Origin: Bergeyella zoohelcum ATCC 43767
Lineage (GTDB): Bacteria > Bacteroidota > Bacteroidia > Flavobacteriales > Weeksellaceae
Direction: 5' to 3'
NCBI RefSeq assembly: GCF_000301075.1
Contig: NZ_JH932293.1
Coordinates: forward strand, 1,648,692-1,712,691
DNA length: 64,000 nucleotides
Part shown: piece by piece, positions 53,537-59,333 of the stretch
Numbering within the stretch: the stretch's first letter is position 1
Layout of the letters: each line of letters opens with the position of its first letter
Notes under the pieces: generated by a model
Told to the model about the DNA's origin: nothing
Databases searched by the model: none
What the model saw: the letters and a program-made list of their open reading frames with translations, nothing else
Translations under genes and position numbers: made by a program

Positions 53537-54616
53537 TTATCCATTCTTCTCTTTTTCCATCATTTCAATAAACTCATCGAAAAGATAGTTGGCATCTTCA
53601 GGTCCAGGGCATGCTTCAGGATGGTACTGTACAGAGAAACAAGGATATTTTTTATGGCGAATTCCCTCATTGGTTTTATCGTTAAGAGCAATGTGTGTTT
53701 CCTCTAAATCTGTATATTTAAGGCTTTCGCTATCAATGGCGTAATTATGATTTTGAGAAGTAATGGTAACTTTATTGGTTTTTAGATCTACTACAGGATG
53801 ATTACCGCCTCTATGCCCGAATTTGAGCTTAAAAGTCTTAGCACCACAAGCTAATCCAAGCACTTGATGCCCCATACAGATCCCAAAAATTGGTACTTTT
53901 CCGATGAGTTTTCTCACGGTTTCGTGTGCATGAGGTACATCTTCAGGGTCACCAGGGCCATTAGAGAGCATCACGCCATCAGGGTTCATCAGGAGGATTT
54001 CTTCCGCTGTGGTATCATGAGCAACCACCGTAATGTCGCAATTTCTTTGTGAAAGTTCACGGATGATTCCCAGCTTAGCTCCGAAATCCATTAATACTAC
54101 CTTAAAGCCTCTTCCGGGGTTGGCATACGGTGTCTTGGTAGAAACGGAAGCAATCTGATCCGTAGGGAAAGAAGTTGCTTTTATTTCATTGATAACACTT
54201 TGTTCATCGATGTCCGCATCCACTATTTTTCCTTTCACCACCCCCTTGTCTCTGAGCACTCTGGTCAGTCTTCTGGTATCTATACTGTGGATGCCCGAAA
54301 GGTTTTTCTTTTTAAAGAGTTCGTCTAGGGACATTTGGGAACGAAAGTTTGATGGTAAATCACACAATTCTTTTACGATAAGTCCTTTAATTGCAGGTTC
54401 TATACTCTCGTAGTCATCTCTATTGATGCCGTAATTTCCGATGAGCGGATAAGTCATACACACGATTTGTCCACAATAGGATGGGTCTGAAACCAGTTCT
54501 TGATAACCTGTCATTCCGGTGTTAAAAACCACTTCCCCTGCTATATTTTCACTCGCTCCGAAGCCTTTACCATAGAAGACCTCCCCTGATTCTAATATTA
54601 ATTTTTTATTGTTCAT
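53537..54616 (-). CDS. carA: Carbamoyl-phosphate synthase small subunit
   Basis: 359 residues. N-terminal domain LILESGEVFYGKGFGASENIAGEVVFNTGMTGYQE; the C-terminal glutaminase has the nucleophile in FGICMGHQVLG and the catalytic His/Glu in SVQYHPEACPGPED. With CarB it makes carbamoyl phosphate for pyrimidine and arginine synthesis. The gene is on the same strand as pyrB but separated from it by two genes of a different kind (54677-58233). Its 60-nt upstream gap holds degenerate GC(A/T)TAAAGC-like repeats and no clear promoter. Confidence 0.96.
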   Translation of the reverse strand: MNNKKLILESGEVFYGKGFGASENIAGEVVFNTGMTGYQELVSDPSYCGQIVCMTYPLIGNYGINRDDYESIEPAIKGLIVKELCDLPSNFRSQMSLDELFKKKNLSGIHSIDTRRLTRVLRDKGVVKGKIVDADIDEQSVINEIKATSFPTDQIASVSTKTPYANPGRGFKVVLMDFGAKLGIIRELSQRNCDITVVAHDTTAEEILLMNPDGVMLSNGPGDPEDVPHAHETVRKLIGKVPIFGICMGHQVLGLACGAKTFKLKFGHRGGNHPVVDLKTNKVTITSQNHNYAIDSESLKYTDLEETHIALNDKTNEGIRHKKYPCFSVQYHPEACPGPEDANYLFDEFIEMMEKEKNG

Positions 54617-54659
54617 TTTATATGCTTTATGCCGTAAGCAGTATGCTTTAGGCGTTTAT
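54612..54659. repeat. Degenerate GCATAAAGC-type word repeats before carA
   Basis: TATGCTTTATGCCGTAAGCAGTATGCTTTAGGC-like text, akin to 8316-8400 and 39405-39478. No other signal seen between the helicase and carA. Confidence 0.4.
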
Positions 54660-54676
54660 AATTTATTTTTTCACAA

Positions 54677-57232
54677 TTATTTTGCTCCTTTTACTGCATT
54701 TTCTCCTTTTGTCAAAAGCTGTAGATTATCAAGTATAGTTAAACCGCCTTTGTGCATAGGTACGATGTGGTCAATTTGAAAAACCAATCTGTTTTTGCTT
54801 TTATAACCGCTTTCGGCACTGAAATAGTAACCACTTTCATCAGTAAATTTTTCAAAAACTTTGTCTCGTAACCATTTTTCGTAAGCTGGATTTACTTTTC
54901 GTATTTCATACAATGGCATTCTCTCAAACTCGCGAATTTCGTATTCTTCCACTGGAAGTTGCTTTTCTTTTTGGTATAATTCTGGATAGAATAGTCTGTT
55001 TTTAGCGAGATTGATTTCATTAATGAATATTCGCTTATCATAATTGAAGAAAGTTTGCCATTCTGTTTCTGATTCTGCCCAAGTTTTATCAATAAAATCC
55101 TTTTCGGCTCTTGAACCTAAATCTTTTACATAAATTTCGTTAGCTACTTTATCAATGTTATATTTCTCTCTTTCCTTCAGTTCTATATATTGTGGTATTT
55201 CTCCCTGAATAATATAATATTGTAGTAAATCTTTAATGTCTTGCTTACTATATGCGGGATATTTCTCTATTCCAAAGAAAAATTCATCTTCAATCTGCTG
55301 TGAATATATATCTAGTTCTTGTTGGTGGAGGTATTCACAATTTTCTAAATTATTATCTTCTACAAAATATGGTAATGTCTCCACAAATTTCTTGTAAGAT
55401 TCTTCTATGTTATCGTAGATTAAGATTTCACAGTTTCGTTGTTTTTCATCTCCTTGTTCCAATTTCTCCAATAATTTGAACTGAAAAATACCTTTAGGGA
55501 TTCGTTGGATAAAATCTAGTTTTTCGAGCTCTTTTTTCGTTTCAGGATCAATAATTTGGTTAGTTAAAATAGCAAATTCTTCTATTTTAGCAATGGATAC
55601 CAAACGGATTAATTGTTTTTTTGTCTCTTTATCTGTATCGTTGAAATCAATATTATCTTCAATGAATAGTTTTTCAGGATTTACCCACGCAATTTTGTCT
55701 TGCCAATTATCAATAAAACTAACGATATACGCTTCCTTTGTTCCTCCAGCTTTTATGCCCCGTAATCCTCTGCCTATCATTTGCGTCATCAGAATGGTAG
55801 AGATGGTTGGGCGTGTTAGGAAAACTGTTTGCACATTGGGTATATCAGTGCCTTCCGTTAAGATATTTACATTGATGAGAACTTCTAATTTCCCGTTTCT
55901 GAAATCATCAATTTTAGCTTTATTTTCTTTGGTAAAATTCGTGGTAACGCCTGTAATTGCATCTTTTATATTAGCAATTACATAGTCAGATTTTATACCT
56001 TTCTCTTGAAATAATTTATTAAGAGCAATGGCATTGTTCACATTCAGAGCAAAAACGAGTGTCTGTTTGTATTTTTCCTTATTTGATACATAGCGTTCAA
56101 CAATGGTATAATTACGCTCTCTATTTTCAGCAATGGTTGTGGCAATATGCTCGCCAATACTATTTATGTCAAATGTATTGAATAATTGAATTTCTTTATC
56201 CGTTAAATTTGCCGTGAGATTTTGCCCCGTTTGTACCTCTTCAAAAATAGGTTCCGACAAAATTCCTAAACGAATAAGTGTTTTTAAATCAATCTTATAA
56301 ATGACATCATCGGGGAATACTTTTTTGAGTAATCCTCGTTCATTTTCTGCCGTTCTGGTAGGGGTAGCTGTTAGTCCCAATAATTTAAAATTCTGAACAT
56401 TATTCTTCAGATTATCGATGAGCTTCCTATAAGTTTTTGCTGTTGCATGATGAGCTTCATCAATTACTAAGAATATTTCATCGGTTTGCTTCTCAATCCA
56501 ATTTTTATAAAGAAACTCAAATCCTGTATTTAGACTGTTTTTACTGGCAATTATTAGGTCATCTGTTGGGCGTATATTGATAGGCTTATCGTGAATACCT
56601 GATAATATTCTATAATTAAAACTATTTCTTTTCGCAAAAATATCCTTATAGGCAAGTTTTTGCACGAATGTATTTTTTGCTTGTTCCAACAGTTCGTGCC
56701 TATGGGCAACCCAGAGTACTTTTTTATTTGTATCTAAAAAGTTTTTGGCAATCCAAAGAGCGGCAGTCAGTGTTTTTCCGCCTCCTGTTGGTAATACCAA
56801 AAGTCCTGAGAATGGATTTTTTTCAGATTTAATGATTTGTTTTTGAAGGTTATAAAAGGCCTCTTCTTGATGCTTATAAGGACGGATTCCACTTTCAGAT
56901 TTTGAAATGTTTATTTTCCCTGCAAAATTTATTTTTGCAGAACCTTGACTTTTATTAGTACTATCGTTTAACATGGATTTTCTAAATGTAATGGTTGAAT
57001 TTTTAGTAAAATCTATTATGCTTTCAAATTTTTCTTTTCCTTTCCAAAATGTAATATCCTTTTCCTTAAGTTTATCTTCAATCTCTTGAAGTATTTTCAA
57101 ATTTCTCCTTTTCAGCATTCCAAATTGTATCAAAATTGTTTCATATCTTCTATGAGTACAATAATACTTATTTCGTTCTATATTATCCGAAATATCTGAA
57201 ACAAATTTTTGTATATCTTTTTGTCTTTTCAT
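54677..57232 (-). CDS. SF2 DEAD/DEAH helicase fused to C-terminal HNH nuclease
   Basis: 851 residues. Residues 1-110 are a helical, lysine-rich region without known motifs. The helicase follows: Walker A PTGGGKT (148-154), DEAH (258-261), TAT (288-290), RecA2 with LVFALNVNNA and motif VI QMIGRGLRG (484-492). Residues about 520-780 are a long region I do not recognise. At the C-terminus there is an HNH nuclease, FQIDHIVPMHKGGLTILDNLQLL (819-841), with the Asp-His pair and the later Asn/Lys. It resembles type I/III restriction translocases, but with a nuclease at the end. The start codon overlaps the stop of the YhcG gene (ATGA), so the two are coupled. The pair sits between pyrB and carA; a defence role is inference. 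Confidence 0.85.
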   Translation of the reverse strand: MKRQKDIQKFVSDISDNIERNKYYCTHRRYETILIQFGMLKRRNLKILQEIEDKLKEKDITFWKGKEKFESIIDFTKNSTITFRKSMLNDSTNKSQGSAKINFAGKINISKSESGIRPYKHQEEAFYNLQKQIIKSEKNPFSGLLVLPTGGGKTLTAALWIAKNFLDTNKKVLWVAHRHELLEQAKNTFVQKLAYKDIFAKRNSFNYRILSGIHDKPINIRPTDDLIIASKNSLNTGFEFLYKNWIEKQTDEIFLVIDEAHHATAKTYRKLIDNLKNNVQNFKLLGLTATPTRTAENERGLLKKVFPDDVIYKIDLKTLIRLGILSEPIFEEVQTGQNLTANLTDKEIQLFNTFDINSIGEHIATTIAENRERNYTIVERYVSNKEKYKQTLVFALNVNNAIALNKLFQEKGIKSDYVIANIKDAITGVTTNFTKENKAKIDDFRNGKLEVLINVNILTEGTDIPNVQTVFLTRPTISTILMTQMIGRGLRGIKAGGTKEAYIVSFIDNWQDKIAWVNPEKLFIEDNIDFNDTDKETKKQLIRLVSIAKIEEFAILTNQIIDPETKKELEKLDFIQRIPKGIFQFKLLEKLEQGDEKQRNCEILIYDNIEESYKKFVETLPYFVEDNNLENCEYLHQQELDIYSQQIEDEFFFGIEKYPAYSKQDIKDLLQYYIIQGEIPQYIELKEREKYNIDKVANEIYVKDLGSRAEKDFIDKTWAESETEWQTFFNYDKRIFINEINLAKNRLFYPELYQKEKQLPVEEYEIREFERMPLYEIRKVNPAYEKWLRDKVFEKFTDESGYYFSAESGYKSKNRLVFQIDHIVPMHKGGLTILDNLQLLTKGENAVKGAK

Positions 57233-58233
57233 CTTTCCATTTGCTCCTCTAATACCCTTTTCTCTCTCTCAATTTCCGCAACCAACTCCTCTTCCGTAGG
57301 TAGATATGCCATATATTTATTGGCAAAAAGCTGCTTATTATCACTTAAAACAGAATACTTAGCAATGGTTTGATCAGTTTCTGTACAAAGTAAAATTCCA
57401 ATAGTAGGGTTATCATTTTCTTTTTTCTCCAAATCGTCAAACATTCTGACATACATATCCAATTGCCCAATATCTTGATGAGTCATTTTATTGGTTTTCA
57501 GTTCTAAAATTACAAAACATTTGAGAATATAATTATAAAATACAAGGTCTATAAAAAAATCCTGTGTCTCTGTCCGGATATGCTTTTGCCTTGCCACAAA
57601 TGCAAAACCTTTGCCCAATTCCAAAAGAAATTTTTGTAAATTGTCTATCAATCCTTGCTCCAACTCTTGTTCCGTATAAGCTGCATTTGCAGGAAGTCCC
57701 AAAAATTCCAATACCGTTGGGTTTTTGATGAACGCTGTTTTATCTTTCTGTAAATCAGATGTATTCTCTTTCATTTCCCGCTCTACCAAATCTGCTCGTT
57801 GGGACGATATAAGCCGATGATAATAGAGCGTATTGATATTTCTCTCTAAAGTTCGCACAGCCCAATTTTGCTCGGTAGCTTCCTTAATATAATAATCTCT
57901 CGCTTTACGGTCTTCCACCCTGAGCAATAAGCGTATATGGGACCAACTCAATTTGGCACACGCGTGTGCCAAATCTTCCCAATAAGGAAATGAAAGATAA
58001 AATGCACGATAATCTCTGAGCGTTCTCGGACTGAAGCCTTTTCCCAATTGGGCGGAAAGAGTTTTTATAACCTCTTTTCCATAATCAGCACGAGCGTTAC
58101 CTCCCTGTTCCTCTTCTACAATTCTCTTCCCTATCAGCCAAAAACCTTCTACCATAGCAAAAGCCGTAGCTGAATAAGCCTTTTGTCTGGCTTGTTCTAT
58201 GATTTTGCGTATATCATTGATACATTGTTGCAT
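57229..58233 (-). CDS. YhcG-family (DUF1016) PD-(D/E)XK nuclease
   Basis: 334 residues from ATG 58233 (MQQCINDIRKIIEQARQKAYSATAFAMVEGFWLIG); an ATG 12 codons upstream is possible. N-terminal DUF1016_N winged-helix-like part (GKGFSPRTLRDYRAFYLSFP). The C-terminal nuclease carries LLELGKGFAFVARQKHI, the Asp in FIDLVFYN and the ELK triad in VILELKTNK (D229, E244, K246), followed by GQLDMYVRMFDD. All key residues are present, so it is likely active. YhcG genes often sit in restriction or defence clusters. Here it overlaps the helicase gene by 4 bp and follows pyrB by 63 nt. Confidence 0.88.
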   Translation of the reverse strand: MQQCINDIRKIIEQARQKAYSATAFAMVEGFWLIGKRIVEEEQGGNARADYGKEVIKTLSAQLGKGFSPRTLRDYRAFYLSFPYWEDLAHACAKLSWSHIRLLLRVEDRKARDYYIKEATEQNWAVRTLERNINTLYYHRLISSQRADLVEREMKENTSDLQKDKTAFIKNPTVLEFLGLPANAAYTEQELEQGLIDNLQKFLLELGKGFAFVARQKHIRTETQDFFIDLVFYNYILKCFVILELKTNKMTHQDIGQLDMYVRMFDDLEKKENDNPTIGILLCTETDQTIAKYSVLSDNKQLFANKYMAYLPTEEELVAEIEREKRVLEEQMER

Positions 58234-58296
58234 GATATTTAATTTTGGTAGTCCATTATAGGCTCTCATTACGCTTGGACGAGATCTATCTTGTCC

Positions 58297-59193
58297 CTAC
58301 GGTTCTATAAATTTTATTCCTTTTTTCTCCAAAGCATCTTTTAGTATGGCCATTCGGGCATAAACGCCATTTTCCATCTGCTTAAAAATACGACTTCTCT
58401 TGCATTCCACAAGGTCTGTATGTATTTCTACTCCTCTGTTAATAGGTGCAGGGTGCATAATGATGGCATTGGGTTTCATTTTCTTTTCCCGCTCTTTGGT
58501 CAGTCCATATTTTTTGTGGTATTTATCTAGGGACATTTTCATTTTTTCCCCATGTCTTTCGTGCTGAATTCTTAGGAGCATCAGTACATCTACTTCGCTG
58601 ATGAGTGCGTCTAGTGAAAGGTAATTTCCATTGATAAATTCGGCCTCATCAAACCAATCTTCAGGACCAGAGAAATAGACTTTTGCTCCCATTTTTCTCA
58701 ATGCATCGGCATTAGAATTGGCCACTCTACTATGCTGAACATCTCCTACGATGCCTACTTTCAAATTTTTAAAAGTACCAAACTCTTGATAAATCGTCAT
58801 CAAATCCAAAAGGCATTGGCTGGGGTGATTTCCTGTACCATCTCCGCCATTAACTACGGCACTTTTTATTCCTGCTAATTCTTCATAATATTTATTTTTT
58901 TTATGCCGAATCACGAATAATTGTACCCCAATACTTTCCAAGGTTTTTACCGTATCATAGAGCGTTTCTCCTTTATTTACCGAAGAATGGGTAACATCAA
59001 ACGGCACTACTTCTAGTCCTAGTTTCCTTTCGGCGACATCAAAACTGGTTTTGGTTCGGGTACTATCTTCAAAGAAAAGATTCGATACGAAAACTTGTTC
59101 TTTTACTTTGGCACTGCGTCCTTCTGAAAAAGCTATTGCAGCTTCTAGGAGTGCCATAATTTCTTCTTTGGAATAATGATGAATCGCTAACAT
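58297..59193 (-). CDS. pyrB: Aspartate carbamoyltransferase catalytic subunit
   Basis: 298 residues. The carbamoyl-phosphate loop FFEDSTRTKTSF, the HPSQCLLDLMTIYQ active-site region, GDVQHSRVANSNADAL and HPAPINRGVEI are all typical. It condenses carbamoyl phosphate and aspartate, the committed step of UMP synthesis. No pyrI follows. The ATG at 59193 lies 4 nt after a TAAATTTG box and just after a terminator that ends a short leader ORF, suggesting regulation by attenuation. carA lies 3.7 kb downstream on the same strand, after an interposed helicase/nuclease pair. Confidence 0.96.
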   Translation of the reverse strand: MLAIHHYSKEEIMALLEAAIAFSEGRSAKVKEQVFVSNLFFEDSTRTKTSFDVAERKLGLEVVPFDVTHSSVNKGETLYDTVKTLESIGVQLFVIRHKKNKYYEELAGIKSAVVNGGDGTGNHPSQCLLDLMTIYQEFGTFKNLKVGIVGDVQHSRVANSNADALRKMGAKVYFSGPEDWFDEAEFINGNYLSLDALISEVDVLMLLRIQHERHGEKMKMSLDKYHKKYGLTKEREKKMKPNAIIMHPAPINRGVEIHTDLVECKRSRIFKQMENGVYARMAILKDALEKKGIKFIEP

Positions 59194-59206: not shown

Positions 59207-59236
59207 AAAAAAACGAAGTCAGTAAATGACTTCGTT
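59207..59236 (-). terminator. Attenuator-like intrinsic terminator in front of pyrB
   Basis: Minus strand AACGAAGTCA-TTTAC-TGACTTCGTT followed by a run that makes T7 (59207-59213). A 10-bp perfect stem. The stop codon TGA of the 33-codon leader ORF lies at the base of the descending arm (59219-59221), so a ribosome finishing that ORF would open the hairpin. Confidence 0.75.
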
Positions 59237-59320
59237 TCGGATAATATTAAAATAAAAATTTATTCCGGTAACACCAGATGAAAAAGCATCAGAAAAGAAA
59301 AAAATCTCTGTATTTTTCAT
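59219..59320 (-). CDS. Putative pyrB leader peptide, 33 codons
   Basis: ATG at 59320, 5 nt after a perfect TATTTTTG; stop TGA at 59219-59221. The product starts MKNTEIFFFSDAFSS and ends NIIRNEVIY. The RNA is U-rich twice: AUUUUUUUCUUUUCU early and AAUUUUUAUUUUAAUAUUAU just before the terminator, the second in the loop of a possible pause hairpin (CGGA...UCCG). The peptide resembles no protein I know, which suits a leader whose translation, not product, matters. The layout parallels the E. coli pyrBI leader. The alternative is a separate small transcript with its own promoter and terminator. Confidence 0.5.
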   Translation of the reverse strand: MKNTEIFFFSDAFSSGVTGINFYFNIIRNEVIY

Positions 59321-59325
59321 TGGTG

Positions 59326-59333
59326 CAAAAATA
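59326..59333 (-). promoter_or_regulatory. -7 box (TATTTTTG) of the pyrB leader
   Basis: Perfect TAnnTTTG on the minus strand, followed by CACCA and the leader ATG. No clean TTG is seen at -33. Confidence 0.6.

What the first reader, a model, noticed from the sequence alone, without database searches (positions are those of the whole stretch)
54677..58233. Coupled YhcG nuclease plus helicase-HNH pair lodged between pyrB and carA
The two genes overlap by ATGA and share the strand of pyrB and carA, whose products work in consecutive steps. One is a DUF1016 PD-(D/E)XK nuclease with an intact triad; the other an 851-residue SF2 helicase with an N-terminal unknown region, a 260-residue unknown middle and an HNH nuclease at the end. 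A DNA-tracking motor with two different nucleases is what one expects of a defence system, yet there is no methylase and it matches none of the systems I can name. By lying inside a pyrimidine operon its expression may depend on the nucleotide-sensing pyrB leader.
Basis: partly seen in the sequence, partly recalled or inferred. Interest (0 to 1): 0.78.

Follow-up and report, generated by a model that had tools for sequence, protein, structure and literature searches.

The report
Restriction genes behind a pyrimidine attenuator
Two DNA-cutting genes sit inside a pyrimidine-making operon of a flavobacterium; they are not a fixed team but two separately moving restriction-type genes, and the operon they joined is headed by a conserved switch that looks built to sense UTP.

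Summary
The two genes are real and as described: a DUF1016/YhcG nuclease (57229-58233) and an 851-aa SF2 helicase with a C-terminal HNH (54677-57232), overlapping by ATGA, between pyrB and carA. They are not a conserved pair. None of 15 other helicase loci carries a YhcG gene; none of 6 close and 39 further YhcG loci carries this helicase. The helicase is rare (11 of 320 family genomes), YhcG common (198 of 320). Both occur alone or beside restriction genes. In 46 of 51 pyrB-carA pairs the two lie within 267 bp, so this is a lineage-specific insertion. Most likely two restriction-type genes met here and are read from the pyrB promoter. An RNA model finds this element in 272 of 316 family genomes. 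It has the layout of the E. coli pyrBI UTP-sensing attenuator and no Rfam family at threshold. UTP response and anti-phage activity are untested.

The parts
59326..59333 (-). -7 promoter box (TAnnTTTG type) of the pyrB leader transcript
   Evidence: no TTG -33 element was found in the 35 nt upstream in this genome
59219..59320 (-). leader ORF, 33 codons plus stop (MKNTEIFFFSDAFSSGVTGINFYFNIIRNEVIY), ATG 5 nt after the -7 box
   Evidence: layout conserved in 47 of 50 distinct loci
59264..59278 (-). small GC hairpin inside the leader ORF (candidate pause hairpin)
   Evidence: present in 24 of 28 distinct leaders, 18-25 nt before the terminator, against 6.2% of codon-shuffled leaders
59210..59238 (-). 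intrinsic terminator, 12-bp stem and U run (attenuator)
58297..59193 (-). pyrB, aspartate carbamoyltransferase
   Evidence: Pfam OTCace_N and OTCace
57229..58233 (-). YhcG/DUF1016 PD-(D/E)XK nuclease; first ATG at 58269, start at 58233 more likely
57229..57232 (-). ATGA stop-start overlap of the nuclease and helicase genes
54677..57232 (-). SF2 helicase with C-terminal HNH, 851 aa
55703..56887 (-). SF2 motor core of the helicase, residues 116-510
   Evidence: Pfam; solved relatives by sequence 7clg and RadD; fold comparison with RadD 7r7j, Z 20.7, 335 residues, rmsd 7.9 on a low-confidence model
54833..55690 (-). middle region of the helicase, residues 515-800: no family match, no confident fold match
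54689..54796 (-). HNH nuclease core, residues 813-848
53537..54616 (-). carA, carbamoyl-phosphate synthase small chain

Best explanation
Two independently travelling restriction-type genes have come to lie in tandem between pyrB and carA in this lineage. The helicase-HNH is most likely a stand-alone DNA-translocating nuclease: its SF2 motor moves on DNA, an unidentified part (N-terminal or middle region) picks the target, and the C-terminal HNH cuts, the logic of SauUSI or HsdR with another cutter. YhcG is most likely the PD-(D/E)XK accessory nuclease of a restriction-modification locus, here living alone. No promoter of the Bacteroidota consensus and no strong terminator was seen between pyrB and carA, so both genes are most likely read from the pyrB promoter and fall under its attenuator. 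In that attenuator RNA polymerase pauses at a small hairpin and a U-rich tract when UTP is low, the ribosome on the leader ORF catches up, and it blocks the terminator. Shown by sequence: gene structure, lack of pairing elsewhere, the empty site in relatives, the conserved leader layout. Inferred: restriction function, co-transcription, UTP sensing, and that low UTP raises expression of the two nucleases.
For: No YhcG in 15 other helicase loci by HMM, with a positive control in the window. pyrB-carA gap of 267 bp or less in 46 of 51 pairs. Nearest YhcG by tree is G266, support 100/96, in an hsdM-YhcG-hsdS locus; next is G002, between an N6-methylase-like gene and a type ISP-like gene. The nearest intact family helicase, 70% identical, is that of Kaistella yonginensis, beside HsdM and HsdS; two further helicase loci lie beside type I RM (L052) or type ISP, putAbiC and GmrSD genes (L053). 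Helicase GC3 0.254 against 0.321-0.369 for fhs, pyrB, lysS and carA, YhcG 0.329. 0 promoters of the form TTG-N18-23-TAnnTTTG in the insert. Leader: 47 of 50 distinct loci with the full layout, 0 of 1000 shuffles, 0 of 256 other upstream regions; U 0.57 against 0.28, higher in 30 of 30 loci; hairpin in 24 of 28; RNA model hits in 272 of 316 genomes, mostly one each.
Against: The ATGA overlap would suit translational coupling of partners. Most helicase loci (12 of 15) are not beside restriction genes in the flank seen, so 'restriction' rests on domains and a minority of loci. The window leader is a divergent copy: no -33 TTG found, stop codon 20 nt into the terminator rather than 2, model E 1.1e-5 against 1e-9 or better in most. 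No transcript or phenotype was available.
Confidence: 0.6

Rival explanations
1. A true two-gene defence system: the helicase loads or drives the YhcG nuclease, and the ATGA overlap sets their stoichiometry.
For: Overlap and common strand; both genes intact; both have relatives in defence or restriction loci.
Against: 0 of 15 other helicase loci have YhcG; 0 of 6 and 0 of 39 YhcG loci have the helicase.
Confidence: 0.15
2. DNA repair or housekeeping helicase: a RadD-like repair motor, with YhcG a repair nuclease, kept for genome maintenance.
For: NCBIfam RadD is the best named match of the motor (E 1.4e-30) and RadD a close solved relative. Some YhcG genes are stably kept in operons across many species, for example between two POT transporters.
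Against: RadD score 106 bits against a cut-off of 720. The helicase is present in only 11 of 320 family genomes, and in G283 it is broken by three stops.
Confidence: 0.1
3. Non-functional passengers, recently inserted and tolerated because they do not block carA.
For: Single genome; broken relative in G283; YhcG sits in tight co-directional contexts (33 of 68 loci) little more often than other genes (76 of 215).
Against: Both frames are open with catalytic residues kept.
Confidence: 0.15
4. On the leader alone: it senses something other than UTP, such as an amino acid or general translation rate.
For: The window peptide has FFF; Rfam Phe_leader scores 27.1 bits, below its cut-off of 55.
Against: No residue run is shared by the other leaders; codon positions vary equally; the constant feature is the U-rich tract before the terminator.
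Confidence: 0.2

Closest known systems
pyrBI (pyrL) UTP-sensitive attenuator of E. coli and Salmonella (mechanism recalled)
   Same: Leader ORF, pause hairpin, U-rich tract and terminator overlapped by the end of the ORF, all before pyrB
   Different: Other phylum; no Rfam family at threshold; leader ATG 5-6 nt after the -7 box, hence almost leaderless; followed by carA, not pyrI
YhcG/DUF1016 family (PF17761 + PF06250; PADLOC PDC-S02)
   Same: Both domains and catalytic residues; association of a homologue with type I RM already noted in PMC1189080 (passages read)
   Different: Stands alone in a pyrimidine operon, no RM genes at the locus
SauUSI, type IV restriction enzyme (PMC7913695, passages read; PADLOC mREase_IV)
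   Same: SF2 motor and nuclease in one chain; 7clg, a code that occurs in that paper, is the best solved relative by sequence, E 1.4e-29
   Different: SauUSI has an N-terminal PLD nuclease; here a C-terminal HNH and an unmatched middle region
RadD, PbeA and Dnd-restriction SF2 motors (names)
   Same: Helicase core
   Different: Match restricted to the core; RadD cut-off not reached

Membership tests
YhcG/DUF1016 nuclease | DUF1016_N plus YhcG_C domains over the curated cut-offs | tested here: met
   132.5 and 186 bits against 32.8 and 32.5
YhcG/DUF1016 nuclease | PD-(D/E)XK residues intact | tested here: met
   E217, D241, K258 in 28 of 28; motif as described in PMC1189080
PADLOC PDC-S02 candidate | profile match | tested here: met
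   E 5.2e-136
PADLOC PDC-S02 candidate | anti-phage activity | not testable with these tools
   needs phage plating
Type I restriction-modification locus | hsdM and hsdS next to the nuclease | tested here: not met
   flanks are pyrB and carA; the only N6_Mtase over cut-off lies about 175 kb away
Pbe system | PbeA over its whole length with its partners | tested here: not met
   match limited to residues 44-508; neighbours are pyrB, YhcG and carA; that PbeA has partners is recalled
SauUSI type IV enzyme | N-terminal PLD nuclease | tested here: not met
   no PLD match in the helicase; HNH at the C-terminus
RadD | NCBIfam equivalog cut-off | tested here: not met
   106 of 720 bits
Conserved two-gene defence module | the two genes adjacent in other genomes | tested here: not met
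   0 of 15 other helicase loci; flanks short on at least one side in L004, L054, L007 and L150
pyrBI-type attenuator | leader ORF ending at a terminator before pyrB | tested here: met
   47 of 50 distinct loci
pyrBI-type attenuator | pause hairpin and U-rich tract before the terminator | tested here: met
   hairpin in 24 of 28 leaders; U 0.57 against 0.28 in 30 of 30
pyrBI-type attenuator | termination falls when UTP is low, depending on leader translation | not testable with these tools
   needs reporter or in vitro transcription

The most novel reading that the evidence does not exclude
A restriction nuclease and a helicase-HNH have been captured by a UTP-sensing attenuator, so that pyrimidine shortage, as when a replicating phage drains nucleotide pools, switches on DNA-cutting defence together with pyrimidine synthesis. 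The underlying element would be a pyrBI-type attenuator with an almost leaderless leader peptide, used across a Bacteroidota family.
Probability: 0.3. Interest if true: 0.75.

Novelty: new variant of a known kind. Interest (0 to 1): 0.5.

Why it matters
The pair turns out not to exist as a conserved unit, which removes a false lead. The leader in front of it is a directly testable regulatory RNA, present in 272 of 316 family genomes. It would show UTP-sensing transcription attenuation, classically an enterobacterial device (recalled), in Bacteroidota, where ribosome-polymerase coupling is little studied (my judgement). It also gives a natural case of restriction genes wired to nucleotide supply.

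Tried and rejected
Pair as a conserved system: rejected on neighbourhood evidence. Phage origin: a viral-contig scan with the YhcG protein confirmed no relative. Recurrent targeting of housekeeping operons by solitary YhcG: tight co-directional contexts are 33 of 68 loci against 76 of 215 background genes, and many of the 33 are one inherited place, so no enrichment is claimed. Structure of the helicase: full-length model of low confidence (mean pLDDT 59, pTM 0.38); middle plus HNH better (pLDDT 77, pTM 0.52), with no Foldseek match at E 0.001 or below, which does not show a new fold. Three weak model hits outside the family (G389, G400, G522) are not upstream of pyrB in the stretch read. Spacer palindrome at 54628-54646: a single copy in the window. 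Literature: nothing on a Bacteroidota pyrB attenuator in searches (search listings only; for PMC9723704 passages and section 19). That paper reports leader-peptide attenuation upstream of amino-acid operons and original elements before pheA and hisG in Flavobacterium psychrophilum; pyrB is not named in the parts I read. No paper on a YhcG-helicase pair in searches (listings); the find calls in PMC10853773 and PMC12839542 count no occurrence of YhcG or DUF1016.
Full report
Observation. The two minus-strand genes exist as described. Pfam gives DUF1016_N and YhcG_C for the first and ResIII plus Helicase_C for the second. The HNH is sub-threshold in this one protein but present in 12 of 12 aligned relatives, with D821, H822, N836 and N845 invariant. 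YhcG keeps E217, D241 and K258 in 28 of 28 homologues. PADLOC files YhcG under PDC-S02 (E 5e-136) and finds only motor-core resemblances (PbeA, mREase_IV) for the helicase.

Is the site an insertion? pyrB and carA coordinates were taken from 119 relatives. For the 51 family pairs on one contig the gap is 25-267 bp in 46, 460 in two (G242, G243), 1744 in G244, 2090 in G004 and 3683 here. The longer gaps I opened hold a 117-aa protein (G242, G243), a dihydroorotase-like and a glyoxalase-like protein (G244; my reading of the sequences), and a 508-aa protein (G004). The helicase has GC3 0.254 against 0.321-0.369 for four neighbours, YhcG 0.329, which hints at separate arrival.

Is the pair conserved? 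The helicase occurs at E 1e-60 or better in 11 of 320 family genomes including this one and in 2 of 395 phylum genomes, including this one, at E 1e-90. One broken copy (G283) has three in-frame stops. I examined 15 other loci: 12 from Bacteroidota genomes (one of them a MAG titled Sphingobacteriales), two Deinococcus plasmids and one viral contig. A YhcG HMM built from 28 sequences found nothing among their ORFs at E 0.1, while the window control scored 2e-152. Flank lengths differ: 431 bp on one side in L004, 2203 and 363 in L054, 3362 on one side in L007, 2650 on one side in L150, otherwise about 3.7-10 kb. Three of the 15 lie beside restriction or abortive-infection genes: L008 (HsdM, HsdS, an AAA_5 protein, a JukA-like protein), L052 (HsdM, an HsdR-like protein) and L053 (type ISP, putAbiC, GmrSD). 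The rest are solitary in the flank seen. YhcG is found at E 1e-30 in 198 of 320 family genomes. In the loci I opened it lies in an hsdM-YhcG-hsdS locus (L055, G266), between an N6-methylase-like and a type ISP-like gene (L058, G002), between PdxJ and a hydrolase, between MoeA and MoaC, between two POT transporters, or between thiolase and acyl-CoA dehydrogenase. None of 6 close YhcG loci (about 20 kb each, one 15 kb) and none of 39 further ones (about 5 kb each) carries the helicase. In a tree of 69 YhcG the window copy is sister to the RM-linked G266 copy (100/96), then G002 (95/81), then the PdxJ and Moa copies (100/97, 100/99). Only two rows were labelled RM by the automatic test there; G002 was recognised as RM-like by Pfam. 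The host itself has a type I locus with its own YhcG (33% identical) about 175 kb away (hsdS and hsdR by my reading of the sequences).

What the helicase may be. By sequence its motor is nearest in the PDB to 7clg (E 1.4e-29), a code that occurs in the SauUSI paper, and to RadD (6e-23). A model with few sequences is poor; over its motor it aligns with many SF2 enzymes including RadD (Z 20.7). Residues 515-800 match no Pfam family, and the model of residues 556-851 gave no confident fold match. SauUSI, type I and type ISP enzymes move on DNA with such motors and cut away from the target (PMC7913695, passages); by analogy I read this chain as a solitary restriction-type motor nuclease. This is inference.

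The leader. Before pyrB lies, in order, a TAnnTTTG box, an ATG 5 nt later, a 33-codon ORF, a GC hairpin within it, a U-rich stretch, and a terminator whose 5' arm overlaps the end of the ORF. Sixty pyrB loci (30, 30; 50 distinct) were tested with one script. All 50 have the terminator and the box plus ATG, and 47 have the whole layout (L071, L085 and L247 do not have the stop in the set range). 0 of 1000 dinucleotide shuffles and 0 of 256 upstream regions of other genes do; the 257th region, the only hit, was the window pyrB itself. Summed entropy is nearly equal at the three codon positions among 20 ORFs of equal length, so the peptide sequence is not what is kept. U is 0.57 in the 18 nt before the terminator against 0.28 in the rest of the ORF, higher in 30 of 30 loci. 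A hairpin with at least three G-C pairs lies 18-25 nt before the terminator in 24 of 28 distinct leaders, with quite different stem sequences, against 6.2% of codon-shuffled leaders. In the terminator, 3 of 9 pairs show changes on both sides. A covariance model from 26 leaders hits 272 of 316 family genomes, mostly once; many of these are close relatives, and the 26 leaders that trained it match by construction. I checked 27 hits against known pyrB places: all 27 are on the same strand, 9-140 nt upstream; extra hits in G310, G201 and G260 and the third in G248 were not examined. Of the 20 genomes shown without a hit, 16 have no pyrB match and the other four have a divergent or truncated one. 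In 395 phylum genomes the model hits 9 family members and three others, weakly, not before pyrB. Rfam has no family at threshold there. The -7 consensus lies at -12 to -5 in Flavobacterium psychrophilum (PMC9723704, passage), so the ORF would start at about +2. The mechanism I infer is that of pyrBI (recalled): with little UTP, polymerase pauses in the U tract, the ribosome that loaded at the 5' end reaches the stop codon and covers the terminator arm, and transcription enters pyrB.

Putting both together. No Bacteroidota-type promoter was found in the insert (3 boxes without a spaced TTG) and no strong terminator, so the insert and carA most likely share the pyrB transcript. Whether this matters to the nucleases is open.

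Verdict. Pair as a system: not supported (0.15). Two restriction-type genes met in an attenuated operon: most likely (0.6). The leader is the part with the strongest evidence and the main reason for the score.

Noticed in passing
window 59210-59333 (minus strand); L064-L093, L229-L258: Conserved pyrB leader with the layout of a UTP-sensing attenuator; model hits in 272 of 316 family genomes, no Rfam family at threshold.
   Followed up: yes
L028, L032, L033, L113, L114, L116, L117, L119 (POT-YhcG-POT); L126, L130, L131, L133, L134, L135, L137 (thiolase-YhcG-acyl-CoA dehydrogenase); L022, L023 (PdxJ); L025, L026 (MoeA-MoaC): Solitary YhcG genes kept between co-directional metabolic genes across several species; families were scanned in one locus of each group and extended by clustering.
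   Followed up: partly
L263 (G000:C1:1868000-1887000): Type I RM locus of the host with its own YhcG between HsdS-like and HsdR-like genes, and RhuM/Fic-like ORFs (names by my reading of the sequences; only hsdM by family search).
   Followed up: partly
L150:5938-8502: Full-length helicase-HNH relative (854 aa, 29% identical) on a viral contig beside serine-recombinase-like ORFs.
   Followed up: partly
L094 (G244), L096, L097 (G242, G243), L095 (G004): Other genes inserted between pyrB and carA, among them a dihydroorotase-like gene in G244.
   Followed up: partly
L050 (G283): Helicase copy broken by three stops, 73-77% identical to the window protein.
   Followed up: no
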